Origin: Thermodesulfovibrionales bacterium
GTDB taxonomy: Bacteria > Nitrospirota > Thermodesulfovibrionia > Thermodesulfovibrionales > Dissulfurispiraceae
Reading direction: 5' to 3'
DNA: 64,000 nt
NCBI GenBank assembly: GCA_020062545.1
Contig: JAGUWD010000009.1
Coordinates: forward strand, 124,001-188,000
In this document: positions 8,002 through 54,674 of the stretch, in pieces
How the letters are laid out: each line of letters starts with the position of its first letter
Numbering within the stretch: position 1 is the first letter of the stretch
The notes under the pieces: model-generated
Told to the model about the DNA's origin: nothing
The model's database searches: none
Seen by the model: the letters and a program-made list of their open reading frames with translations, nothing else
Translations under genes and position numbers: made by a program

Positions 8002-9432
8002 CTATTCGTATATTTTTCTCTGATTCTGGGGTGGAATCTTTAACTCCTCCCGATATTTTGCAACTGTCCTTCGCGCAATTGTGATATTCTGGTTCTTCAA
8101 CCTGTCGGCTATCATTTGATCACTCAAAGGCCTTTGGGGATCCTCCTCCGAAACAATCTTTTTAATAATGTCCTTGACAGAGGTAGACGAAACCTCGCCT
8201 GTCTCTGACTGGATTGCACTGCTGAAAAAGAATCTGAAACTAAAGACCCCGTGGTTACATGCAAGGAATTTATTAGATGTCACCCTGCTTACCGTGCTTT
8301 CATGCATATTAATATCGGATGCCACATCCCTGAGATTCAAAGGCCTCAGGGATTGAACTCCCATGTCGAAAAATTCCTTTTGAAATTTCAGGATGCTTTC
8401 AGAAACCTTATATATTGTCCTGTTTCTCTGGTCAAGGCTCTTTATCAACTCGGTGGCAAGTCTCAGCTTCTCCTTTAAAAATTCCCTCTCTTCCTTTGTA
8501 AGGGATTCCTTCCTCAGGAGGAGCTTACGGTAGCTGCTGTTCAGCCGCAACCTCGGCAAGCCGTCTTCATTCAGGATTATCTGGTATCCTTCTTCGGTCT
8601 TTGATATAAAAACATCGGGCACTATGTAATTGGTTTCAACGTTCGAAAAACCTGTAGCAGGCCTCGGATCAAGTCCTTCTATTATCTTGACAGCAGCTAT
8701 TATATCGTCCATGGGCGAGTTGTATTGTTTTGCTATGCTGCTGTATTTCTTTTTCTGCAAATCTTCCATATTGTTAATGATTATCTTCTCAACCAGAGTG
8801 CCGCTCAGGTTTAAGACCTTAAGCTGCAATAAGAGGCACTCCTTCAGATCCCTTGCTCCAACGCCGGGAGGGTCAAAGCCCTGGACAAGCGCAATGGCAG
8901 ACCTCACCGTATCGATATCCGCACCGGTAACAGATACCAGTTCCTCATCCGTAGCCCTGAGATAGCCGTCTTCGTCGATATTGCCGATTACTGCCTCTGC
9001 GACCTTTCTTATTCCATCATCTGCAGTGCTCAATCTCAATTGCCAGAGTAAATGGTCGTACAGATTCGGCTTCTTGGAACAAAAGAGCTCATATGACGGT
9101 TGTTCTTCGATGTCAGGCGTAAAATAACCGAGGTCCCTGCCGTCGCTGCTCCTTTCTTCAAAATATTCATCGACGCTGAAGTTCATAAGACCCTCAAGAG
9201 GCATTTCGGCGTCATCGGCAGCAATGGATGGAGTGGTATCCTCAACGGTATGCTCCTCCACTTCCGGCTCTTCAAATTCTTCTTCCAGAAAAGGATTCTC
9301 TATAAGCTCGTTGTTCAATGTCTGGGCGAGTTCGAGCTGGGGCATCTGCAAAAGCTTGATAGCCTGCTGGAGTTGAGGCGTAAGGATAAGCTTTTGAGCG
9401 AGTCTTAAGTCTAATCTGCTTTCCAGTGCCAT
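8002..9432 (-). CDS. rpoN: RNA polymerase sigma-54 factor
   Basis: Alternative sigma factor that reads -24/-12 promoters and needs an NtrC-type ATPase activator. The 476-residue protein has the N-terminal activator-interaction region (LDLRLAQKLILTPQLQQAIK with following Gln-rich helix), an acidic linker, the core-binding domain, the HTH (LRDVASDINMHESTVSRVTS) and the C-terminal RpoN box ARRTVAKYR. Its ATG overlaps the lptB stop by one base. It is directly relevant to the sigma-54 promoter and NtrC-type activator found at 44267-45753. Confidence 0.97.
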   Translation of the reverse strand: MALESRLDLRLAQKLILTPQLQQAIKLLQMPQLELAQTLNNELIENPFLEEEFEEPEVEEHTVEDTTPSIAADDAEMPLEGLMNFSVDEYFEERSSDGRDLGYFTPDIEEQPSYELFCSKKPNLYDHLLWQLRLSTADDGIRKVAEAVIGNIDEDGYLRATDEELVSVTGADIDTVRSAIALVQGFDPPGVGARDLKECLLLQLKVLNLSGTLVEKIIINNMEDLQKKKYSSIAKQYNSPMDDIIAAVKIIEGLDPRPATGFSNVETNYIVPDVFISKTEEGYQIILNEDGLPRLRLNSSYRKLLLRKESLTKEEREFLKEKLRLATELIKSLDQRNRTIYKVSESILKFQKEFFDMGVQSLRPLNLRDVASDINMHESTVSRVTSNKFLACNHGVFSFRFFFSSAIQSETGEVSSTSVKDIIKKIVSEEDPQRPLSDQMIADRLKNQNITIARRTVAKYREELKIPPQNQRKIYE

Positions 9433-43092: not shown

Positions 43093-44280
43093 ATGTTAAA
43101 ACGGGTATTACAGTTTGTAAGTTATCTTATCATTTCGCTGAGCTTTGGACTGCTGGTTATCATTATATCAGGCAACATAGGAATCATATTACAGGAAAAA
43201 AAAGTAAGACAGGCCACAAAGCTGGAAATTAAAAATGCCATCTCGGCTTTTAAAGATTCCGCTCCAGATGCAACGCCGGATCAGACAATAAACTTCTTAA
43301 GAAAGTTTACGGCCTCTGTTATGAAAGAAAAGGTAATAGCCCTTGATCCTGCCCAGGGTAAAAAACCAGATAGGGATGAATTTAAACATTTATTTACATT
43401 CTCGGAAGGAGGGAAAAACATAGATCTATATATAAAAAACGAATATGTGCGGGATGAAATTTTTGACCTTGACTCTACCGAACTTATTGAAGGTGTTTTC
43501 TCAACCATTATAGTGTTCACTGCCATTATCATATATACCGAAAAAAGACGACGGGCTTTAATAATGCAACAGCAATTTGAAACCAAACATGAGGCGTTAA
43601 AAAAAGCGCTGGAAGAGAATGAAGCCCTGGCACTGCTTGGACGCATGACAGCAACACTTGCACACGAGCTTAAAACGCCAATCGCCACCATATCTAACCT
43701 TGTTCATGTATTGCCTTCCCGCATTTCCGACGAACATTTTACAAAGCGCTTTGATACCTTGTTAAAAGAAGAATTAAATCGTATCCAGCAGCTTATCGAT
43801 AACCTCCTGATTTACGGGAAAGAGATAGCTATTAAAGATGTCCGGTGGATAAGGCTGAAGCCATTTATTAAAGAGTTATCAGATGCAATCGGCATAGAAA
43901 TATCTTCCTGTCCGGATGTGGACATATATGCGGACAGATTTTATATGAGGCTATTTTTTGAGAATCTCATAAGAAACAGTCTGCAGGCCGGCGCAGACAG
44001 GGCTTCCATAAAAATAAGCATACCGCCGTCAAAAGAAGATCGGATTACAGAGATTCTTTATGAAGATAACGGCATTGGATTTCCGGAAGGGTGCAACCTT
44101 GATGAGCTCATAACTCCATTTGTAACTCATCGTTCAAGAGGGGCAGGCCTCGGGTTGTTCCTTGCGCAGAAAATTGCCTTGGCACATGGCGGCACAATAT
44201 CATTATACCGCCTGACAAAAGGAGCCGGGATCAGGATATCAATGCCTCAAGAGAGCGTGCATTTAAATGAGCAACCATAA
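43093..44280 (+). CDS. Membrane sensor histidine kinase
   Basis: 395 residues: membrane helix 1 (FVSYLIISLSFGLLVIIISG, residues 8-27), an extracytoplasmic sensor of about 105 residues with no recognised fold, membrane helix 2 (VFSTIIVFTAIIIYT, 135-149), a short coiled coil, then HisKA with phospho-His H191 in TLAHELKTPIATIS and an HATPase domain (N-box FFENLIRNSLQAGA, G1 DNGIGFPEG, G2 GAGLGLFLAQK). It overlaps the response regulator gene by 14 bp. The pair probably controls the sigma-54 promoter at 45738; the signal is unknown. Confidence 0.93.
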   Translation: MLKRVLQFVSYLIISLSFGLLVIIISGNIGIILQEKKVRQATKLEIKNAISAFKDSAPDATPDQTINFLRKFTASVMKEKVIALDPAQGKKPDRDEFKHLFTFSEGGKNIDLYIKNEYVRDEIFDLDSTELIEGVFSTIIVFTAIIIYTEKRRRALIMQQQFETKHEALKKALEENEALALLGRMTATLAHELKTPIATISNLVHVLPSRISDEHFTKRFDTLLKEELNRIQQLIDNLLIYGKEIAIKDVRWIRLKPFIKELSDAIGIEISSCPDVDIYADRFYMRLFFENLIRNSLQAGADRASIKISIPPSKEDRITEILYEDNGIGFPEGCNLDELITPFVTHRSRGAGLGLFLAQKIALAHGGTISLYRLTKGAGIRISMPQESVHLNEQP

Positions 44281-45625
44281 CTATAAACCATATCTGATAA
44301 TTGTAGATGACGAGCCCCATTTCAGTGAGTCGCTCCAGATGGCCATTGAAGACACGTTCAAAGTTTCAACGGCACCTTCACTTGGCAGTGCCAGAGAACT
44401 GCTTAAAGAAAAAATACCCGATGCAGTATTGCTTGATATGAAACTGCCGGATGGCAATGGAATCGATTTCCTTCGTGAATTAAAGGTAATAAATCCAATG
44501 CCTGTAGTGATCATTATGACTGCCTATGCTGCCATAGACAATGCTGTTACAGCACTAAAAGAGGGTGCTGTCGATTATTTTACAAAGCCATTGGATATAG
44601 AAAAGCTCAAAAGAGAACTCAATGTGTATCTTGAGAATAAATTCCTCCAAAAAAGGGTAATCATATTAGACAGAGAGATAAAGAAGATTATTCCGCCTTT
44701 TGTAACATCAGGGGCTGGAAAAATGAAAGAGATAGTCGACAAGGTTCCATTGATAGCATCCCTCAATATTCCGGTATTGATAAAAGGAGAAACCGGCACT
44801 GGAAAAGAAAAACTTGCAGAATGGATACATGCCATATCCGGAACAACAAGAGAGATGGTTGCCATCAACTGCTCTGCATTACCAAGAGACATCTTCGAAA
44901 GTGAATTCTTCGGCCATATGAAAGGCGCGTTTTCAGGGGCGGTTGCTTACAAAGAAGGTTTGATAGAGCGGGCTGAAGACAGTACCCTTTTCCTCGATGA
45001 AATCGGAGAGATCCCGGAAGCTGTCCAGGCAAAATTTTTAAGGGTGCTTGAAGACGGTGTCTATTACAAAGTTGGAGATTCAAAGGAACGTAAAATCAGG
45101 TTCAGGCTTATCTCTGCAACAAACAAAGACCTCGCAGATCCTGCGAATAACTTTCGACCCGACCTTTTTTACAGGATCAACGGAATCACCTTTGAACTTC
45201 CCCCGCTGCGAGAGCGCAGAGAGGACATTCCACTGCTTATAACAACATTTATTAAAGAGGCTAATAATACCTACAACAAGAATGTAGAAGGAGTTTCAAC
45301 AAAAGTTAAGGAATATCTTATGAATTATACATGGCCGGGCAATATAAGAGAGCTTAAATGGCTCATTCACAGGGCAGTTGCGATTACTTCAAAAAACCTG
45401 ATCAACATAGACGACCTGTCGATCAGTTCCGAGGTTTTCAAAGACATCCCGGCAGTCACAGACATCGATTATTCAATCCCTTTTCAAGAGGCACAGGAGA
45501 GGCTCGAAAAAAAATATATCAAGAATGCACTCTCAACTGCTAATAATAATAAAACCGAGGCAGCCAGAATCCTTGGCATATCGGTCAGGGTTTTGCATTA
45601 TAAGATAAAAAAATATCGCTTGTAA
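44267..45625 (+). CDS. NtrC-family sigma-54 response regulator
   Basis: 452 residues: receiver domain with phospho-acceptor D57 (VLLDMKLPDGNG) and K107 in YFTKPLD; AAA+ activator domain with Walker A GETGTGKE at 174-181, the sigma-54 contact loop GAFSGA at 220-225 (usual form GAFTGA), Walker B in STLFLDEIGEI; and a Fis-type HTH at the C-terminus (NNKTEAARILGISVRVLHYK). It should activate RpoN-dependent transcription when phosphorylated by the kinase encoded just upstream. The nearest sigma-54 promoter is 113 bp downstream of its stop. Confidence 0.96.
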   Translation: MSNHNYKPYLIIVDDEPHFSESLQMAIEDTFKVSTAPSLGSARELLKEKIPDAVLLDMKLPDGNGIDFLRELKVINPMPVVIIMTAYAAIDNAVTALKEGAVDYFTKPLDIEKLKRELNVYLENKFLQKRVIILDREIKKIIPPFVTSGAGKMKEIVDKVPLIASLNIPVLIKGETGTGKEKLAEWIHAISGTTREMVAINCSALPRDIFESEFFGHMKGAFSGAVAYKEGLIERAEDSTLFLDEIGEIPEAVQAKFLRVLEDGVYYKVGDSKERKIRFRLISATNKDLADPANNFRPDLFYRINGITFELPPLRERREDIPLLITTFIKEANNTYNKNVEGVSTKVKEYLMNYTWPGNIRELKWLIHRAVAITSKNLINIDDLSISSEVFKDIPAVTDIDYSIPFQEAQERLEKKYIKNALSTANNNKTEAARILGISVRVLHYKIKKYRL

Positions 45626-45666
45626 ACAAAATATCGGATTCGCATCAAATGCACCCTATCACCAAT

Positions 45667-45678
45667 AATGTATACATT
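45667..45678. promoter_or_regulatory. Palindrome AATGTATACATT, candidate enhancer site
   Basis: A perfect 12-bp palindrome 60 bp upstream of the -24 element of the sigma-54 promoter. NtrC-type activators bind palindromes roughly 60-150 bp upstream, so it is a candidate site for the adjacent regulator. Confidence 0.45.
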
Positions 45679-45737
45679 TTTTTCACACACCATTAGGCCC
45701 TGCATTATAACCATTTGAAATATATACACTTTGCAGT

Positions 45738-45753
45738 TGGCATAAAACTTGTT
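45738..45753 (+). promoter_or_regulatory. Sigma-54 (-24/-12) promoter of the tatA operon
   Basis: TGGCATAAAACTTGTT matches TGGCACG-N4-TTGCW with the exact spacing: the invariant GG at 45739-45740 and the TTG at 45749-45751. Expected start site near 45764, where an inverted repeat TAGAAC-TTTAT-GTTCTA (45764-45780) begins. Confidence 0.78.
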
Positions 45754-45806
45754 TTTCTAATATAGAACTTTATGTTCTAAAAATGCACTTAAAGGGGGAT
45801 AGAGCT

Positions 45807-46028
45807 ATGTTTGAAGGTTTATTGCAGCCCATGCATCTGCTTGTGATATTGATTATTGTGTTAATAATCTTCGGCCCGGGAAAACTTCCACAGATTGGCG
45901 CAGGTCTCGGCAAAAGCATAAGGGAATTTAAAAAGGCAATGTCGGAAATAGACAAGCCTCAGATAGAAATTGAAGCAAAAGAGAACAAAAAACCAGAACC
46001 TGTACAAGAAGAGAAAAAACCTGTATGA
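45807..46028 (+). CDS. tatA: TatA-family twin-arginine translocase protein
   Basis: 73 residues: a single membrane helix ([20 protein letters not shown], from residue 9), the hinge [20 protein letters not shown] and an amphipathic helix with a charged tail. The ATG at 45807 follows AGGGGGAT; an upstream in-frame ATG at 45783 precedes that site. It is the first gene after the sigma-54 promoter, without tatC nearby. A Tat-signal protein (DUF362, 55472) is encoded 9 kb downstream in the same region. Confidence 0.92.
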
Positions 46029-46765
46029 AGGAGGTAAAAGGCAGCATAACTATGAACCCAAATCCCTTTATTACAATAGACTTTGACGGCACGGTAACGG
46101 ATTTGGATATCACCGATGCCATTATAAAGGAGTTTGCAAAACCAGGATGGGAAGAAGCAGAAAGGCTTTGGGAAGAAGGGGGCATCGGGTCAAGAGAATG
46201 CCTCGCCATGCAGATGTCCCTCATCGATGCGCCGATTGAAAGGCTTTTAGAGTATATACGCGATTTTGCCATAGATGAAAGCTTTATCGGATTTATTGGT
46301 TTTCTAAAAGAATTTCATATCCCCTTCGGCATAATAAGCGATGGATTTCAGGTCGTTATAGAAAGCATCCTCGCAGATGCTGGTCTATATGATATACCTG
46401 TATATGCAAATCGATTAGTTGCAGGCGATGGGGGATTAAAAACTCTTTTCCCTTATGCAAATAAAAGTTGTTCATCCGGAATGTGCAAATGCAAAACCGC
46501 CGGGGGTTTAAGCAATGGACTCCCTATCATACATATCGGCGATGGACGAAGCGATTTCTGCCTTGCTGAAAAAGCAGCGTACGTCTTCTCAAAAAGAAGA
46601 CTCACCGATTACTGCAGAACAAAAGGCATATCGCATTCTGCATTCAATAACTTCAAGGTTATAGAAAGAAGTATGAAAATGCTTCTAAAGCATACGCTTA
46701 TACCCGAAAGGTCACATATATACCAAATCGAGAAGGAACCGAGAATATGGAATCTCGTAAGTTAA
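46025..46765 (+). CDS. HAD-IB phosphatase, MtnX-like
   Basis: 246 residues of the phosphoserine-phosphatase-like HAD group. Motif [11 protein letters not shown] (nucleophile and acid Asp), motif II in GIISDGF, motif III/IV with [10 protein letters not shown]. The cysteine run [12 protein letters not shown] recalls MtnX (methionine salvage phosphatase), but no other salvage genes are here, so the substrate is probably different. The ATG overlaps the tatA stop (ATGA); an internal ATG at 46052 is also possible. Confidence 0.78.
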
Positions 46766-48129
46766 AAGAAAAGGAACTTTTAGAGCTGGAATCAAAATAT
46801 TGCTCGTACGGCGATACCGTTCATTATCTTGAAAACCCTATAATCTTTGAGAGGTGTGAGGGGTCATGGATCTTCGATATGCAAGGAAGGCCGTATCTGG
46901 ACATGCAGATGTGGTACTCTGCAGTTAACTTCGGATACAGGAATAAAGAGATAGAGGATGCCCATCATCGCCAGATGGCCACACTACCACAGGTTGCATC
47001 CCAATACCTTCATAAAGAAAAGATACTCCTCGCCTCTGCCATTGCAAAGGAAACGGAAAAGAGATTTGGCACAAAGGGGAGAGTCCATTTCAATGTAGGC
47101 GGATCGCAGGCTATCGAGGACAGCCTGAAATTGGTACGCAACTACAAAAAAGGCAGGTCACTGACGTTCGCCTTTATGGGGGGATATCACGGAAGGACCC
47201 TGGCAGCCACGGAGATCACAAGCAGCTTCAGGTACAGAAAGAGATACGGACATTTCGGCAGCAGGGCAACATTTATCCCCTATCCTTACTGCTTCAGATG
47301 CTTTTACGGTAAGAACCTTAAAGACTGCGGGTATGAGTGCATAAAACATTTTGAGAAGCTCTTTGAGACAGAATACTATGGGGTGATAGACAAGAAGGAT
47401 AATGAGGTGGAATACGCTGCCTTTTATATAGAGCCTCTCCAGGCAACAGGAGGCTATATTGTTCCTCCGCCTGAATACTTTAAGAAGCTTTCTGCGGTAC
47501 TTCAGAAATACGGCATTTTGCTTGTGGATGACGAAATACAGATGGGATTTTACAGGACAGGCAAACTCTGGGCAACGGAGCATTTTGGTATTAAGCCAGA
47601 CATTGTTGCATTTGCCAAATCCCTCACCAATGGCCTGAATCCCTTATCCGGCATATGGGCAAAGGAAGATCTCATCAACCCCTTGATATTCCCTCCCGGT
47701 TCCACTCATTCAACATTTTCGAGCAATCCACTGGGGACAGCAGCAGGCCTTGCCACTATGGAATATATCAAGAAAAATAATTTCGAAGAGATTGTGCCGG
47801 GAAAAGGGGAATATATTCTTTCACGGCTGAAGGATTTGCAAAAAAAGCACAAAGTGATAGGGGATGTAGATGGGCTGGGGCTTGCAGTCAGAGTGGAAAT
47901 GACAAAGCCAGACGGTTTTACACCCGACAGGGAACTTACCGACAGGATATTTCAGGAAGGGATGAAGGGCGATATAAAGATTAACAGGAAGAAATTCGGT
48001 CTGGTGCTTGATGTAGGAGGATATTATAAGAATGTCTTCACACTGGCACCAGCATTAACCATCGCATATGCCGAGATAGATCTGTTCATTGAACTTTTTG
48101 AATCACTGCTGAAAAGATGCGGAGTGTAA
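46747..48129 (+). CDS. Class III PLP-dependent aminotransferase
   Basis: 460 residues, similar to 4-aminobutyrate/ornithine/diamine aminotransferases: GGSQAIEDSLKLVRNYKKGR, GGYHGRTLAATEITSSFRYR, the Cys-rich loop YPYCFRCFYGKNLKDCGYEC, the cofactor Asp in LLVDDEIQMGFYRTGK (D262) and the PLP lysine K291 in FAKSLTNGLN. It overlaps the phosphatase gene by 19 bp. The natural amine donor is unknown; diamine- or amino-acid-type substrates are typical of the family. Confidence 0.88.
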   Translation: MESRKLKEKELLELESKYCSYGDTVHYLENPIIFERCEGSWIFDMQGRPYLDMQMWYSAVNFGYRNKEIEDAHHRQMATLPQVASQYLHKEKILLASAIAKETEKRFGTKGRVHFNVGGSQAIEDSLKLVRNYKKGRSLTFAFMGGYHGRTLAATEITSSFRYRKRYGHFGSRATFIPYPYCFRCFYGKNLKDCGYECIKHFEKLFETEYYGVIDKKDNEVEYAAFYIEPLQATGGYIVPPPEYFKKLSAVLQKYGILLVDDEIQMGFYRTGKLWATEHFGIKPDIVAFAKSLTNGLNPLSGIWAKEDLINPLIFPPGSTHSTFSSNPLGTAAGLATMEYIKKNNFEEIVPGKGEYILSRLKDLQKKHKVIGDVDGLGLAVRVEMTKPDGFTPDRELTDRIFQEGMKGDIKINRKKFGLVLDVGGYYKNVFTLAPALTIAYAEIDLFIELFESLLKRCGV

Positions 48130-48150: not shown

Positions 48151-48510
48151 ATGCCGCTTATTAAATGGTTTCCCCTGTTTATAGCAGGAGCAATAATGGA
48201 AAGCACGACACAGCTATGCCTGAAAAAAGGAGCAACAGTCCACAAAGAGATTAGTGGATTTGCATATTATCTCAAACTCATAAAGAATAAATGGGTCATC
48301 GCAGGGATATTGTTCTATTTGATAGAAATGGTCATATGGATAGTGCTGCTTTCATATATTCCACTGTCGATTGCCTTCCCGCTAACCGGGCTTCAGAAAA
48401 TAATCATTGTATTCTTTTCTGTCCTTGTACTGAAGGAAAAAGTCAGCAGATTGGAATGGCTCGGAGTTGGGATCACTGCAATTGGCATAGTAATAATAGG
48501 ACAGACATAG
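48151..48510 (+). CDS. Small four-helix transporter, SMR/EamA type
   Basis: 119 residues with four membrane helices: WFPLFIAGAIMESTTQLCLK carries the conserved Glu-like position in the first helix, then KNKWVIAGILFYLIEMVIWI, VLLSYIPLSIAFPLTGLQKI, and WLGVGITAIGIVIIGQT. SMR proteins work as dimers or as pairs of unlike halves (for example MdtI/MdtJ for spermidine, ArnE/ArnF for aminoarabinose-lipid). A second such gene lies at 53693. Confidence 0.82.
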   Translation: MPLIKWFPLFIAGAIMESTTQLCLKKGATVHKEISGFAYYLKLIKNKWVIAGILFYLIEMVIWIVLLSYIPLSIAFPLTGLQKIIIVFFSVLVLKEKVSRLEWLGVGITAIGIVIIGQT

Positions 48511-48528: not shown

Positions 48529-49323
48529 TTGGCAGGCAAAAATGAAATATATTTAGAAGGCGGACAGAATGCCGTGCTTCTAATTCATGGTTTGACCGGG
48601 AGTCCCTTTGAGATGAATTATCTGGCAAAGAGGCTTAATAAGGCAGGTTTTACGGTAAAAGCACCCTGTCTTGCCGGTCATGGCACAACAATAGATGACC
48701 TCAAAAAAACCAGGTGGCAAGACTGGTACAGGACAGTGTCAGAAACCTTTGAAGAATTAAAAAAGAATCATTCGTCTGTTGCTGTCTCCGGATTATGTAT
48801 GGGCGCTGTACTGGCTCTCTATCTTGCCTATAAAGCAGAAGATGATGTATCTGGAATATCTCTTTTTTCTACAACTCTCTTTTATGACGGCTGGAGTTTG
48901 CCGTGGTATAAATTTCTCCTTCCGATAGTCTATTACACACCCCTCCGCTCAATTGCCTCTTACAGAGAGAGGGAGCCTTACGGGATTAAAAACGAAAGGC
49001 TGAGAAGGCAGATTGTAAAAGGCATGAAGGACAGCGCAATTGCCTATTCCAGATTCCCCTGCACCGGTATGTATGAATTATTAAAACTTGTAAGGAATGT
49101 TAAGAAGGTTATTCCCAGAATAACCACGCCTACACTTATACTCCACTCGATAGAAGACGATGTGGCAAGCGTTAAGAATGCGCATTATATTGAAATGCAT
49201 ATAGGCTCTGAAAACGTGCGCAAGGTTTTACTCCACGACTCCTATCACATGATCCCTATAGACAATCAGAGGGAATTGGCAACAGAGGAGACTATCAGGT
49301 TCTTCAAGGAAAATGTTAAATAA
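48529..49323 (+). CDS. Alpha/beta hydrolase with Cys nucleophile
   Basis: 264 residues resembling Est30-type carboxylesterases: oxyanion loop VLLIHGLTGSPFEMNYLAK, LAGHGTTIDDLKKTRWQDWY, nucleophile elbow GLCMG (C90 where esterases have Ser), acid D210 or D211 in HSIEDDVAS and H240 in HDSYHMIPID. A Cys nucleophile is known in dienelactone hydrolases and PHA synthases. The start is TTG at 48529 with AGGAGG 8 nt upstream. It overlaps the next gene by 11 bp. Confidence 0.85.
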   Translation: MAGKNEIYLEGGQNAVLLIHGLTGSPFEMNYLAKRLNKAGFTVKAPCLAGHGTTIDDLKKTRWQDWYRTVSETFEELKKNHSSVAVSGLCMGAVLALYLAYKAEDDVSGISLFSTTLFYDGWSLPWYKFLLPIVYYTPLRSIASYREREPYGIKNERLRRQIVKGMKDSAIAYSRFPCTGMYELLKLVRNVKKVIPRITTPTLILHSIEDDVASVKNAHYIEMHIGSENVRKVLLHDSYHMIPIDNQRELATEETIRFFKENVK

Positions 49324-50254
49324 CCTGGTCTGCTTTTCTCTTATGCTCTTGCTTGTCTTCGTTCCGTACACATTGGTTCATGCGGATGAATTTGTATTCA
49401 AAGCCGGTGCAGGAATACAGGCGATCAATAAAGCCGACAGCCTCTGGGCATATGGAAAAAAGAACATCGAAGGCATTTACAAAAAGCCGCAATCAAAGAC
49501 AATGCTTTTTCCTTTCCCGCTCTTTGATGCCAGATATATCAATAAAAGATTAAACACTGAATACTACATCAGCACTTTGACTGAAGAACCTGGGTCTCTG
49601 TCATTGGGAATCGAAAAGGATTTTGATGACATAAGTTCCATTGACATTTATGGCTTTTATTCCCTCATGTCAAAGGAATGGAAAAACCCTTATTTATTGC
49701 AGAGGGAATCTACAAATGCAAATGAGTATGGCGCAAAAATCACCTATGAAAACATCCTCAGAACACCAATTATCCTTTCATACAGGGTTGCCTTCACAGA
49801 CATATCAAAAGATGAGATAGGCGACATCTATTCAGACCTCAAGAGAAACGGAAGCTCTCACACAGTGAGCCTGGGCTATCAGCAGATGTTTTCCAAAGAA
49901 TTCGGCATTACTCCAGGACTCTCTTATGAGAAGGGCTTATTTAAAGGGAAAAGCAACGGCTATGACAGCTATGAATTATTCCTTGGGTGTAATTACAAAG
50001 ATGAAGTCCTCGACCTGAACGCGAGGCTATCGGCAAAAACCGAACAATTCGACAAAGTCCATCCAATTTTTCAAAAGACAAGGAATGAGAAGACCTATGA
50101 GTTTTCGACCACGGCTACCATATCCTTAAAACCAATCGGGTTTAAAAATTATTCCATCACTGCCGGAGTAGCAGCAAACAGAACCACCGCAAATATCATA
50201 TTTTTTGATAAATACAGTATCGGTGGTTATCTGGGTGCAATGTATCAATTTTAG
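49313..50254 (+). CDS. Outer-membrane beta-barrel-like protein
   Basis: 313 residues: signal peptide (VCFSLMLLLVFVPYTLVHAD, cleavage near 25) and alternating beta-strand pattern to a terminal phenylalanine (GGYLGAMYQF), the usual end of an outer-membrane barrel. Repeated segments with aromatic girdle residues (SLSLGIEKDFDDISSIDIYG, TVSLGYQQMFSKEFG, YELFLGCNYKDE). It recalls DUF2860-like proteins, but this is not certain. It may be the export porin or anchor for the product of the cluster. Confidence 0.7.
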   Translation: MLNNLVCFSLMLLLVFVPYTLVHADEFVFKAGAGIQAINKADSLWAYGKKNIEGIYKKPQSKTMLFPFPLFDARYINKRLNTEYYISTLTEEPGSLSLGIEKDFDDISSIDIYGFYSLMSKEWKNPYLLQRESTNANEYGAKITYENILRTPIILSYRVAFTDISKDEIGDIYSDLKRNGSSHTVSLGYQQMFSKEFGITPGLSYEKGLFKGKSNGYDSYELFLGCNYKDEVLDLNARLSAKTEQFDKVHPIFQKTRNEKTYEFSTTATISLKPIGFKNYSITAGVAANRTTANIIFFDKYSIGGYLGAMYQF

Positions 50255-50275: not shown

Positions 50276-51496
50276 ATGAGCATGTTTAGAGAAATTCCGC
50301 CTACTGCCGGTTTCCCTCTTCATGGGAAGGACTTCCTTCCTATTTTCAGGATAAGGAACCATGGCAAATGTATGGAGGATGATTTTAAAGAATACCTTAA
50401 TGTCTCTTATGCACGGGTGGCCTATTCAGGGACCGCTGCCTTTTACCTGATACTTGAGAGTTTAAAGAAAATATCGTCCAAGCACACGGTTGTTATCCCA
50501 TCTTATATCTGCCCTCTAATCCCTCTGGCAATAAAAAGGGCAGGCCTCGGGATTGAGGTGTGCGATATCAAAAAGGATGACTTTAATTTCAACCTGCAGA
50601 GTCTCGAGGATATATGCAGTAAGAACAGTGATATCCTTGCTGTCGTAGCAGTGCATCTGACAGGCATTCCTGTAGACTTCGATGCCTTAGAAAACATTGC
50701 GAAAAAACATGGCATATTCACCATCGAGGATTGTGCCCAGTCATTAGGTGCAATGTATAAAGGCAAACTGGTTGGGACACTGGGAGACTTTTCCTTCTTC
50801 AGCCTCTGTCGTGGGAAGGGCATAACTACTTATGAAGGGGGTATAATAGTTGCCGGCAGGCAAGAATATGCCGCCGTCATAGACAGCACTATAGAGCAGA
50901 TCGTAAAAAATGATTTCCTATCCGAAGGTATACTGACACTGCTGCTTTTCGGATACTGGATTTTTTACCGGCCACTTTTATTCTGGTTCGTTTTCAGGCT
51001 TCCACAGATCTTCTGGAATTGGAGAGGCGATAAGATAAAAGCAGCCATGGAAGATTTTGATATCGATTTCCCTACGCACAGAATGTCTGCAATAAGACAG
51101 TTGATAGGACATGGACAGTTTCATCGTCTGGAAAAAGAAATAGACAAACAAAGACAAAAAGCAGCCTTTTACATGTCGCGGCTGAAAAAAATTAAAGGCA
51201 TCAAGATAATTAAAGAACATCTGGACAGCAGGGCAACTTATCCTTTTGTGACCCTGATTTTTGACAATCCCGACAAAAGAGAAAGGGCTTTGAAAATCTT
51301 AGGCAATACCGGCTTTGGCGCATCCATTGTGTATGCGATGGCTATTGCCGATTACGGTTATTTAAAACATATAGTTCCGGACAGGAATTGCTCCAATGCC
51401 CGTTATATAACAGATCGGGCATTAACCCTATCAACAAGCACTTTTCTAAAAGATAGGGATCTGAATTCGATTGTGAATATAATAGAAAATTTATAA
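50276..51496 (+). CDS. DegT/DnrJ/EryC1-type aminotransferase with hydrophobic segment
   Basis: 406 residues of the sugar-aminotransferase family. PLP lysine K181 in FSFFSLCRGKGITTYEGG, the phosphate-binding VAYSGTAAFYLILESL, and EDCAQSLGAMYKGKLVGTLG. An unusual hydrophobic stretch at about 219-247 (ILTLLLFGYWIFYRPLLFWF and beyond) sits after the PLP site and may attach the enzyme to the membrane. Such enzymes aminate nucleotide-linked ketosugars; the sugar is unknown. Confidence 0.85.
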   Translation: MSMFREIPPTAGFPLHGKDFLPIFRIRNHGKCMEDDFKEYLNVSYARVAYSGTAAFYLILESLKKISSKHTVVIPSYICPLIPLAIKRAGLGIEVCDIKKDDFNFNLQSLEDICSKNSDILAVVAVHLTGIPVDFDALENIAKKHGIFTIEDCAQSLGAMYKGKLVGTLGDFSFFSLCRGKGITTYEGGIIVAGRQEYAAVIDSTIEQIVKNDFLSEGILTLLLFGYWIFYRPLLFWFVFRLPQIFWNWRGDKIKAAMEDFDIDFPTHRMSAIRQLIGHGQFHRLEKEIDKQRQKAAFYMSRLKKIKGIKIIKEHLDSRATYPFVTLIFDNPDKRERALKILGNTGFGASIVYAMAIADYGYLKHIVPDRNCSNARYITDRALTLSTSTFLKDRDLNSIVNIIENL

Positions 51497-51500
51497 TACA

Positions 51501-52598
51501 ATGCACCCTGAATCTATAGATAAAGACCTGTTGAATCTCCTTGAACCTGAAGGCCTTGTGCATGTATTCATGACCGAGCCTCCTGAAGGCTTTGAACCGG
51601 TATCGCTTGAAGTAAACGGCAAACATGTTCATGGATTTCTGGCAGAGCTTGACCTTTTCACAACTGTCGATGGAAAAGTGAAGGGATTTTATGAAAGGCA
51701 TAAAGGCTTATTGCCAGCCTTCATTAGAAGGCTTTTGAAACCGAGGGTCATTTTCATCGGCACCACTGTTTCAGAATACGCCCTGTTTCCCTATGGTATT
51801 GAGCCAATGACCCTGAAAGACTCTGTGGTTTCAAAACTGAATGAGTCAGGCCTTCGGTTCCTTATTATAAAAGATATACCTTTAGAGTCCTATCTTCTTT
51901 CGGAGGAGGAGAATGAATTTTCGAGACAACTGATTTCCCATCTCAAAAACAACGGCTTCTTCATTTTATACGGCCAGGCGTTGGCATATGTGCCTGTTAA
52001 TTTCAACTCCACCGAAGAATATTTACAGAGGCTTTCACGCTCAAGGAGAAAAGACATAAAGAGGAAACTGCGCTCCTTCTCCGAGATATCCATAGAGCAG
52101 ATTAAAACAGGCACTGATTTTTTCACCGATTCTACCATAGACCTTCTCTATGGGCTGTACCTCAATGTATACAAAAAGAGCGGGATACATTTTGACAAAC
52201 TCGCCCTTTCCTTTTTCAAAAAGGTATTCAGAGACAAAAACAATGGAGGCATTGTCTTCTTATACCGTCATCGAGACAGGATAATCGGATTCAACCTCTG
52301 CTTCATTGTTAGGGATTATTTAGTCGATAAATATGTCGGCTTTCTATATCCAGACTCCCACCGGTTTAACCTGTATTTTACAAGCTGGTTTTACAATCTG
52401 GATTTTTGCATCCGGAATAACCTTAATGCCTTTATTGCAGGCTGGACAGACCCTGAAATAAAATCTTATCTTGGTGCTGAATTCACATACACCTATCATG
52501 CGGTATATATAAAGAATCCCCTTCTGAGGTTTATCCTGAACAGGTTCAAATCTGTTTTTGAATCAGATAAGCATGTTCTTGAAAAATCAAAGAGGTGA
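51501..52598 (+). CDS. FemAB/GNAT-type acyl or aminoacyl transferase
   Basis: 365 residues of the FemAB-like/BioF2-like group, the 'peptidogalycan' type: GFEPVSLEVNGKHVHGFLAE, FNSTEEYLQRLSRSRRKDIK (a charged helix typical of the group), GIVFLYRHRDRIIGFNLCFI, IAGWTDPEIKSYLGAEF. FemAB relatives move amino acids or acyl groups to cell-wall or surface amines. It follows the aminotransferase by 4 bp and converges on the arginase-family gene with a 3-bp gap and no terminator. Confidence 0.8.
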   Translation: MHPESIDKDLLNLLEPEGLVHVFMTEPPEGFEPVSLEVNGKHVHGFLAELDLFTTVDGKVKGFYERHKGLLPAFIRRLLKPRVIFIGTTVSEYALFPYGIEPMTLKDSVVSKLNESGLRFLIIKDIPLESYLLSEEENEFSRQLISHLKNNGFFILYGQALAYVPVNFNSTEEYLQRLSRSRRKDIKRKLRSFSEISIEQIKTGTDFFTDSTIDLLYGLYLNVYKKSGIHFDKLALSFFKKVFRDKNNGGIVFLYRHRDRIIGFNLCFIVRDYLVDKYVGFLYPDSHRFNLYFTSWFYNLDFCIRNNLNAFIAGWTDPEIKSYLGAEFTYTYHAVYIKNPLLRFILNRFKSVFESDKHVLEKSKR

Positions 52599-52601
52599 CC
52601 C

Positions 52602-53462
52602 TCAGGCGCTTATTCCTTTCAGCAAAGACAATATCTTCATATTAAGTTCCCTGTGCTTAAACTGTTCTTTTTCAATATTGGTAGGCATTTGTTCATATCT
52701 ATCAATCAGCCGCATAATTTTTTTCAGGCGACTTTTATAATTATACGAAGATATGTCTCCAACAATATCTGCGGCAATAACAGAGGGAGCTATTTCCTCG
52801 ATACATCTGAGCAGTTCGTTTTCCTGCATTCGCCCCTGATCCCAGCCTGTTCTCAAAGTCTCGCCAGAAAGCACGTCTTTATCTATGGAGAGATAAACAG
52901 GCCCTCTTTTTTTTTGCGCTTCCTCTTTTAAGATTTCAGCAACGCTTTTTTGAGAAGCCCTGATGTCATCTATTCCATTTTCACTCAACAGCCCCATAAG
53001 TTTAGATACAGGAGCCAAACAATAGTATTTCACTTTTCCTGATCTAATAACAGAAAACCTGTTTTGAATTATATTCAATCCTCTTATATCTTTAGAGGCA
53101 ATGCCAAACACAGAGATATTTGTGACATTGGGCAGCTTGCTCGCATGATAGACCCATGAGCCGCAGTGTATACCGGCGGGGAAGAACATATTATCAGGGT
53201 GGTTATCGAACAACACCACATGGAGGCCATCATACGGCATATGCTTTATAAGCAGATAGCTTATATGATGAAAATCGCCGTTTCCAAGGAAAAAGACCCG
53301 ATGCCTTTCAACCGCTTTTTTAATAATACCTTCGAGACCCGTCATATCGCCAAAGCTTGAATAATAGCGCACCCTCTCCTCACAGCCTCTCATATCAAGC
53401 CTCGGTATTTCCTTTGGCAAAGAGACAGAACCGTCAAAGTCGAGTATCAAGGCGTCTTGCAT
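52602..53462 (-). CDS. Arginase/agmatinase-family metallohydrolase
   Basis: 286 residues with ureohydrolase metal motifs in divergent form: GNGDFHHI at 60-67 (usual GGDHS), FDNHPD with D86 and D90 (usual DAHxD), LSIDKDVL with D194 and D196. The usual second acidic residue of SxDxDxxD is replaced by S199. Family members hydrolyse guanidino or formimino compounds. The substrate is unclear. It is the only minus-strand gene inside the 43-56 kb block. Confidence 0.8.
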   Translation of the reverse strand: MQDALILDFDGSVSLPKEIPRLDMRGCEERVRYYSSFGDMTGLEGIIKKAVERHRVFFLGNGDFHHISYLLIKHMPYDGLHVVLFDNHPDNMFFPAGIHCGSWVYHASKLPNVTNISVFGIASKDIRGLNIIQNRFSVIRSGKVKYYCLAPVSKLMGLLSENGIDDIRASQKSVAEILKEEAQKKRGPVYLSIDKDVLSGETLRTGWDQGRMQENELLRCIEEIAPSVIAADIVGDISSYNYKSRLKKIMRLIDRYEQMPTNIEKEQFKHRELNMKILSLLKGISA

Positions 53463-54101: not shown

Positions 54102-54130
54102 TTGACTGAAAGCAGTGCTATTGATATAGT
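54102..54130 (+). promoter_or_regulatory. Sigma-70-type promoter of the archaemetzincin operon
   Basis: -35 TTGACT (54102-54107), 17-bp spacer, -10 TATAGT (54125-54130). The predicted start site is at or within one base of the ATG at 54138, so the mRNA should be leaderless. Confidence 0.65.
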
Positions 54131-54137
54131 TTATTAT

Positions 54138-54674
54138 ATGAGGCTTCTCATAATCCCCATAGGAGCTATCGATTCAGATGTTCTGAAAGACATCTCGGAT
54201 GCCCTTGAAAAGACATTTCATTGCAAGGTCGAATTTGGCAAAGAAATATCTTTACCGCATGATTTGTATAACAACAAGAGAGGGCAATACCACTCCACGC
54301 GAATTCTCAGGAGGCTGCATCCCTTTAAGACAAAAGACTTTCACAGGGTGCTCGGTGTAATGGATGCAGACCTCTATGTCCCTGAACTCAATTTTGTCTT
54401 CGGGGAGGCGGATATATTAGCTGGAGTAACGGTTATAGCCCTCGCAAGGCTGCGTCAGGAATTCTACGGACTAAATCCCGACAAAGACCTCTTTCACCTG
54501 AGGGCTGTCAAAGAGGCCATACATGAAATCGGCCATACATACGGCCTCGGCCACTGTCCTGACCCTAAATGCATAATGTATTTTTCCAACAGCCTGAAGG
54601 ATACCGACAAGAAAGGCCCTGGATTCTGTGACATCTGCAAGCATGAACTCAATATATTAGTGTCAGAGGACTGA
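54138..54674 (+). CDS. amzA: Archaemetzincin-family zinc metalloprotease
   Basis: 178 residues starting MRLLIIPIGAIDSDVLKDIS, as archaemetzincins do. The zinc site HEIGHTYGLGHC is at 129-140, with C140, C145 and the pair C164-x2-C167 (GFCDICK) forming the second, cysteine-based zinc site of the family. Peptidase family M54; the natural substrate is unknown. I start at 54138; the frame is open to a TTG at 54102, but that TTG is the promoter's -35 box. Confidence 0.92.
   Translation: MRLLIIPIGAIDSDVLKDISDALEKTFHCKVEFGKEISLPHDLYNNKRGQYHSTRILRRLHPFKTKDFHRVLGVMDADLYVPELNFVFGEADILAGVTVIALARLRQEFYGLNPDKDLFHLRAVKEAIHEIGHTYGLGHCPDPKCIMYFSNSLKDTDKKGPGFCDICKHELNILVSED

What the first reader, a model, noticed from the sequence alone, without database searches (positions are those of the whole stretch)
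43093..45806. Two-component, sigma-54 control of the tatA-led operon
A histidine kinase and NtrC-type activator sit directly before TGGCATA-N4-TTGTT with exact -24/-12 spacing, and a perfect 12-bp palindrome lies 60 bp further upstream. rpoN itself is in the window. This makes a coherent regulatory hypothesis for the genes from 45807.
Basis: partly seen in the sequence, partly recalled or inferred. Interest (0 to 1): 0.65.

Follow-up and report, generated by a model that had tools for sequence, protein, structure and literature searches.

The report
Dedicated sigma-54 switch for envelope operon
A sensor kinase and its DNA-binding partner appear to switch on the neighbouring eight-gene, tatA-led operon through a sigma-54 promoter, and the same operator and promoter, 66-68 bases apart, recur in relatives that carry this kinase/regulator pair and were found in none that lack it.

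Summary
The histidine kinase (HK, 43093-44280), the NtrC-type activator (RR, 44267-45625), the -24/-12 site (45738-45753), the 12-bp palindrome (45667-45678), tatA (45807) and rpoN are all present. The palindrome alone is not significant. Comparative evidence decides the case. Orthologues of the pair were found in 13 genomes. In 12 of them a longer operator, GTATAC[AG]NTTTTTGCGC, lies upstream of a sigma-54 site. Spacing is 66-68 nt in 11 and 134 nt in one; the thirteenth contig is truncated. Seven of the 12 cassettes precede the same HAD/aminotransferase operon. It is absent from 13 homologous operons in genomes without the pair, and from 167 pair-less genomes of the order. Elsewhere the cassette sits upstream of efflux, porin or glycosyltransferase genes near the kinase. 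The true operator is therefore an asymmetric dyad of which the palindrome is only the core. Most likely this is a local two-component/sigma-54 regulator of envelope genes. Unexpectedly, alphaproteobacterial versions of the operon also have sigma-54 sites, with a different operator and a different NtrC-type regulator. This is a new regulon of a known kind. The signal and the operon's product remain unknown.

The parts
43093..44280 (+). Sensor histidine kinase, 395 aa: TM, about 100-aa extracytoplasmic sensor, TM, HisKA (H-box LAHELKTP), HATPase_c
   Evidence: Pfam; orthologues at 44-63% identity in 12 other genomes; sensor modelled as a small alpha/beta domain with no confident PDB match
44267..45625 (+). 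NtrC-family response regulator, 452 aa: receiver, sigma-54 AAA+ (GAFSGA in place of GAFTGA), Fis-type HTH ending ILGISVRVLHYKIKKYRL; overlaps the kinase gene by 14 nt
   Evidence: Pfam; orthologue alignment; recognition helix unlike those of the other enhancer-binding proteins of this genome that were read
45660..45686 (+). Proposed operator of the RR: imperfect dyad TRC-N7-GTATAC-[AG]NTTTTT-GCGC; window copy CACCAATAATGTATACATTTTTTTCAC
   Evidence: 12-genome alignment, position -10 to +16 around GTATAC; operator found only in pair-bearing genomes among all held loci
45667..45678 (.).
45715..45724 (+). TTGAAATATA, a conserved A-rich block about 22 nt before the -24 element; role unknown
   Evidence: seen by eye in most of the aligned sites
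45738..45753 (+). sigma-54 -24/-12 promoter TGGCATAAAACTTGTT; predicted +1 near 45764
   Evidence: 11 of 12 orthologous sites have a strong -24/-12 match exactly 66-68 nt after GTATAC; 0 of 1000 shuffles per site reach that
45807..46028 (+). tatA-like gene (TatA_B_E, 73 aa) with Shine-Dalgarno AAAGGGGG at 45791-45798; first gene of the target operon
   Evidence: Pfam and NCBIfam TIGR01411; 4 TatA/B/E genes in the genome
46025..46765 (+). MtnX-like HAD-IB phosphatase, second gene
   Evidence: TIGR01489 above cut-off
46747..48129 (+). class III aminotransferase (AT3), the most conserved gene of the operon
   Evidence: PF00202; 487 relatives in genome contigs
48151..48510 (+). small EamA/ArnE-like membrane protein
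48529..49323 (+). alpha/beta hydrolase (Hydrolase_4)
49313..50254 (+). DUF2860 protein; G006 has a ketosynthase between EamA and the hydrolase and no detected DUF2860 homologue
50276..51496 (+). DegT/DnrJ aminotransferase
51501..52598 (+). FemAB/GNAT-like acyltransferase, last gene of the co-directional run (gaps -19 to +21 nt)
8002..9432 (-). rpoN (sigma-54)
   Evidence: PF00309, PF04963, PF04552

Best explanation
HK 43093 and RR 44267 form a dedicated two-component system. An envelope signal sensed by the kinase's extracytoplasmic domain leads to phosphorylation of the RR (inferred). RR binds the dyad centred at 45672/45673, about -91 from the predicted start (inferred from footprinting). 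It then activates sigma-54 RNA polymerase at 45738-45753 to transcribe tatA-HAD-AT3-EamA-hydrolase-DUF2860-DegT-FemAB (inferred). Shown here by comparison: the operator, the sigma-54 site and their fixed 66-68 nt spacing are conserved, travel with the kinase/regulator pair, and follow the target operon even when the pair is encoded elsewhere. In relatives whose cassette is not at this operon it sits upstream of RND efflux, porin or glycosyltransferase/YdjC genes, so the family as a whole looks like an envelope-response regulator whose target varies by lineage.
For: (1) G006 has the same gene order and keeps TGTATACATTTTTT and TTGGCA[CT]AAAA in otherwise diverged intergenic DNA. (2) Seven genomes (window, L075, L077, L079, L084, L090, L091) have GTATAC 66-68 nt before a -24/-12 site upstream of the tatA/HAD-AT3 operon; these are exactly the AT3 genomes with an HK orthologue at 50% identity or more. 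13 AT3 loci without the pair have none (Fisher 7e-5). (3) In four of these genomes the pair is not next to the promoter: G014 and G023 on another contig, L084 and L091 downstream of the cluster. Conservation is therefore not a by-product of adjacency. (4) In pair-bearing genomes where the cassette is not at AT3, it is in front of YdjC/GT2/GT87/OEP/HlyD (G092), HlyD-RND (G064), HlyD-RND-OEP (G215), porin-HK-RR (G011) and, at 134 nt, OEP-HlyD (G152). (5) In the order the refined cassette occurs in 6 of 8 pair-bearing and 0 of 167 other genomes (p 8e-10). Among all held loci the operator occurs only in pair-bearing genomes. (6) RRs with the site share the ISVR[VT]LHYK helix, except G011 (ISSRALHYK) and one I/L change in G116.
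Against: No binding or expression data. The window's own copy is among the weaker ones: -12 is GT rather than GC, and the operator arm is TTCAC rather than TGCGC. Some sites (G092, G064) were found with a pattern that required both elements; the others were not. Genomes are related, so the p-values overstate independence. In L092/G152 the pair is present, but the AT3 operon has no site and the only cassette has 134-nt spacing. Other enhancer-binding proteins of these genomes were not tested for the same co-occurrence. The RR has GAFSGA (GAFTSA in G109), a variant described as functional in PMC4641369 and PMC6615313 but not tested here.
Confidence: 0.86

Rival explanations
1. The operon is transcribed from a sigma-70 promoter: TTGGCA (45737) as -35 and TATAGA as -10. 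The -24/-12 resemblance and the palindrome are incidental.
For: TTGGCA matches TTGACA at 5 of 6, and G006 and L091 have TATAGT 15-16 nt on.
Against: No -10 hexamer is shared: the best match is 3-5 of 6 at spacings from 15 to 19, while the TTG[CT] -12 element and GG-N10-G spacing are kept in the 11 sites with standard spacing, bar GG for GC in G011. Presence of the site tracks an enhancer-binding protein. The consensus scan did not list this site.
Confidence: 0.05
2. The sigma-54 promoter and operator are real, but the operator is bound by a different enhancer-binding protein of the genome, or by another factor; the adjacent pair is a neighbour only.
For: The assembly holds 27 sigma-54 activator-domain matches. 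The GTATAC core with a one-sided arm is unusual for a Fis-type HTH, and only G011 and G092 show a near-complete dyad.
Against: The operator occurs in genomes with this pair and not in relatives without it, across several target genes. It lies next to the pair in the window, G006, G092, G064, G215, L090 and G011.
Confidence: 0.08
3. The palindrome and -24/-12 match are chance features of AT-rich intergenic DNA.
For: Neither motif alone exceeds chance in the window.
Against: Both are conserved at fixed spacing in 11 further genomes apart from one spacing exception; 0 of 1000 shuffles per site.
Confidence: 0.01

Closest known systems
NtrC-family two-component systems (NtrBC, ZraSR, AtoSC, XrtA/PEP-CTERM PrsK/PrsR)
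   Same: HisKA kinase plus receiver-AAA+-Fis HTH regulator, adjacent genes, sigma-54 promoter with an upstream activator site
   Different: Scores far below every equivalog cut-off tried: AtoC 343 of 714, PrsR 319 of 503, NtrC 317 of 559, ZraR 296 of 760. Operator GTATAC-[AG]NTTTTTGCGC was not found in the held literature. One dyad at a nearly fixed -91.
Aquifex aeolicus NtrC1/NtrC4-type structures (1ny5, 4l4u)
   Same: Best solved relatives over the receiver, AAA+ and HTH domains
   Different: Sequence relatives only; function and operator not shared as far as tested
sigma-54 regulons of Desulfovibrio vulgaris (PMC4641369)
   Same: Many local sigma-54 two-component regulons, including lipid A and envelope-stress operons; GAFSGA regulators occur there too
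   Different: Neither GTATAC nor TTGCGC appears in that paper's text
sigma-54 as controller of the bacterial exterior (PMC3162934)
   Same: Target genes here (efflux, porin, glycosyltransferase, lipid-like biosynthesis) fit that theme
   Different: That survey does not describe this system in the passages read

Membership tests
NtrC-type (group I) bacterial enhancer-binding protein | Receiver + sigma-54 AAA+ + Fis-type HTH | tested here: met
   PF00072, PF00158, PF02954
NtrC-type (group I) bacterial enhancer-binding protein | GAFTGA loop and Walker A/B motifs | tested here: met
   GAFSGA in the window and all read orthologues except G109 (GAFTSA); GETGTGKE and TLFLDEIGE present; variant reported as permissive
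NtrC-type (group I) bacterial enhancer-binding protein | Activates sigma-54 RNA polymerase in an ATP-dependent way | not testable with these tools
   needs in vitro transcription
sigma-54-dependent promoter | GG-N10-GC at -24/-12 | tested here: met
   GG-N10-GT in the window; GC or GT in 11 of the 12 sites, and GG in G011
sigma-54-dependent promoter | Transcription lost in an rpoN mutant, start 11-12 nt after the -12 G | not testable with these tools
   no expression data
ZraSR, AtoSC, NtrBC or PrsKR (named equivalogs) | NCBIfam equivalog score above cut-off | tested here: not met
   all below cut-off
Two-component pair | Adjacent HK/RR genes with phospho-acceptor His and Asp | tested here: met
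   H-box LAHELKTP; D in VLLDMKLPDG; genes overlap by 14 nt

The most novel reading that the evidence does not exclude
The HAD-AT3 envelope-type biosynthetic cluster has been placed under sigma-54 control at least twice independently. In the window's family it uses this kinase/regulator and GTATAC-TTTTTTGCGC. In alphaproteobacteria it uses a different NtrC-type regulator (35-38% identical) and a GCTACAAAATTTGTAGC-like operator. In the first case operator and promoter behave as a near-rigid 66-68-nt cassette that moves between efflux, porin and lipid operons.
Probability: 0.55. Interest if true: 0.55.

Novelty: new member of a known kind. Interest (0 to 1): 0.48.

Why it matters
It gives an uncultured Nitrospirae-type lineage a testable regulon with a defined operator, promoter and regulator, found from sequence alone. 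It points to an uncharacterised, widespread HAD/class III aminotransferase cluster as something cells switch on in response to an envelope signal, alongside efflux pumps and porins. The recurrence of sigma-54 control over that cluster with unrelated operators suggests the pathway's product must be tightly off until needed.

Tried and rejected
Palindrome alone as evidence: rejected, not above chance. -24/-12 match alone: rejected, not above chance in the window. A loose composite pattern over the order also hit about 21 pair-less genomes; inspection showed none has the TTTTTTGC arm. A 2-mismatch operator search gives background hits in nearly all genomes, but 0-1-mismatch hits are confined to pair-bearing genomes except one in G004. 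A second degenerate copy of the palindrome near -37 in the window (ATATACAC) is not conserved and was dropped. Sensor-domain fold search gave nothing. Literature search for the operator or the gene cluster found no description. My first regular expression for the operator was wrong and returned nothing; corrected.

Full report
Observation. The kinase (43093-44280) carries HisKA and HATPase_c. The regulator (44267-45625) carries receiver, sigma-54 AAA+ and Fis-type HTH domains. The -24/-12 site is TGGCATAAAACTTGTT at 45738-45753, and the palindrome AATGTATACATT is at 45667-45678. tatA starts at 45807 with a Shine-Dalgarno sequence at 45791-45798; the upstream ATG at 45783 has none. rpoN is at 8002-9432 on the minus strand. 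Neither short motif is significant by itself.

Operon. tatA, HAD phosphatase, class III aminotransferase (AT3), EamA/ArnE-like, alpha/beta hydrolase, DUF2860, DegT and FemAB-like genes run in one direction with gaps of -19 to +21 nt to 52598. AT3 and HAD are a widespread pair. What the pathway makes is not known. The presence of ketosynthase (in relatives), ArnE-like, FemAB and DegT genes suggests an envelope lipid or glycan modification, which is inference.

Comparative test. I found orthologues of the kinase, at 44-63% identity against about 30% for other kinases, in 12 other genomes. G109 and G240 are the same record, as are G117 and G152. One orthologue, G224, lies at a contig end and could not be examined. 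G006 has the same gene order as the window and keeps the two elements in otherwise diverged DNA. In six AT3 loci fetched independently (L075, which is G006, L077, L079, L084, L090, L091), GTATAC followed by a T-rich arm, usually ending in GCG, lies 66-68 nt before a good -24/-12 site. These are exactly the genomes with a kinase orthologue at 50% identity or more. L092 has a weaker orthologue (47%) and no site at AT3. The 13 other loci with AT3 at 70% identity or more have no kinase orthologue and no site.

The cassette follows the target, not the pair. In G014 and G023 the kinase and regulator sit beside a potassium transporter on another contig, yet the cassette is at the AT3 operon. In L084 and L091 the pair lies downstream of the cluster while the cassette is upstream of it.

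Other targets. Where the cassette is not at AT3 it stands in front of other envelope genes. In G092 these are YdjC, GT2, GT87, OEP and HlyD. In G064 they are HlyD and RND. In G215 they are HlyD, RND and OEP. In G011 they are a porin followed by the pair itself. In G152 they are OEP and HlyD. Eleven of 12 sites have spacing 66-68 nt; G152 has 134 nt. In shuffles, 0 of 1000 per site placed a match of score 11 or more at 66-68.

Operator. The 12 sites define TRC-N7-GTATAC-[AG]-N-T-N-[TA]-TT-G-C-[GA]-C. GTATAC and the C of GCG are invariant; the left arm is weak except in G011 and G092, where the dyad is nearly complete. The regulators share the recognition helix ISVR[VT]LHYK (LSVRVLHYK in G116, MSVRVLHYK in G064 and G152), with G011 (ISSRALHYK) the clearest departure. 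No other enhancer-binding protein of the window's genome that I read has it.

Background. A loose composite pattern finds scattered hits in pair-less genomes of the order, but none with the arm: refined cassette in 6 of 8 pair-bearing and 0 of 167 pair-less genomes. The p-value of 8e-10 ignores relatedness. Among all loci held at the end, the operator alone occurs only in the 12 pair-bearing genomes.

Sigma-70 rival. TTGGCA could be a -35 box, but no -10 box is shared across the sites, whereas the -12 TTG[CT] is.

Unexpected extension. HAD-AT3 operons of alphaproteobacteria (Telmatospirillum, Alsobacter, Rhodospirillales, Hyphomicrobiales) also carry strong -24/-12 sites about 50-120 nt upstream of HAD. 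Across all 76 loci examined, 17 sense-strand sites score 12 or more, against 1 on the antisense strand. Nearby is another NtrC-type regulator family (61-86% identical to each other in the seven loci compared, 35-38% to the window's). A GCTACAAAATTTGTAGC-like dyad lies 60-63 or 82-91 nt upstream. Presence of an NtrC-type regulator in the locus goes with a sigma-54 site (12 of 16 against 5 of 60). This was followed only in part.

Verdict. The regulatory hypothesis is well supported by phylogenetic footprinting, with the operator redefined. Shown: conservation, spacing, co-occurrence. Inferred: binding by this regulator, activation of transcription, envelope signal. The system works like and belongs to the NtrC-type two-component/sigma-54 kind. 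It does not belong to any named equivalog tested.

Noticed in passing
L095, L098, L101, L105, L110, L114, L119, L141, L148, L152 upstream of HAD: sigma-54 promoters and a GCTACAAAATTTGTAGC-like dyad upstream of the same HAD-AT3 operon in alphaproteobacteria and others, with a second NtrC-type regulator family nearby in seven of these loci.
   Followed up: partly
window 45715-45724 and equivalents in relatives: Conserved TTGAAAWATAA block about 22 nt before the -24 element in most cassettes; no known role (perhaps a bending or upstream-contact site).
   Followed up: no
L178 12975-13109: Single spacing exception, 134 nt, about twice the usual 67 nt, in G152.
   Followed up: no
window 54102-54674: Archaemetzincin-like metalloprotease (Peptidase_M54) next to a radical SAM protein and a DUF362 protein.
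   Followed up: no
window 52602-53462: Weak arginase-family match on the opposite strand directly after the operon; homologues lie inside the AT3 cluster on the same strand in other genomes.
   Followed up: no
L063 and L064: In G014 and G023 the kinase/regulator pair sits between a Kup-like potassium transporter and what look like cobalamin-biosynthesis genes, apparently with a cobalamin riboswitch between, and without the operator.
   Followed up: no
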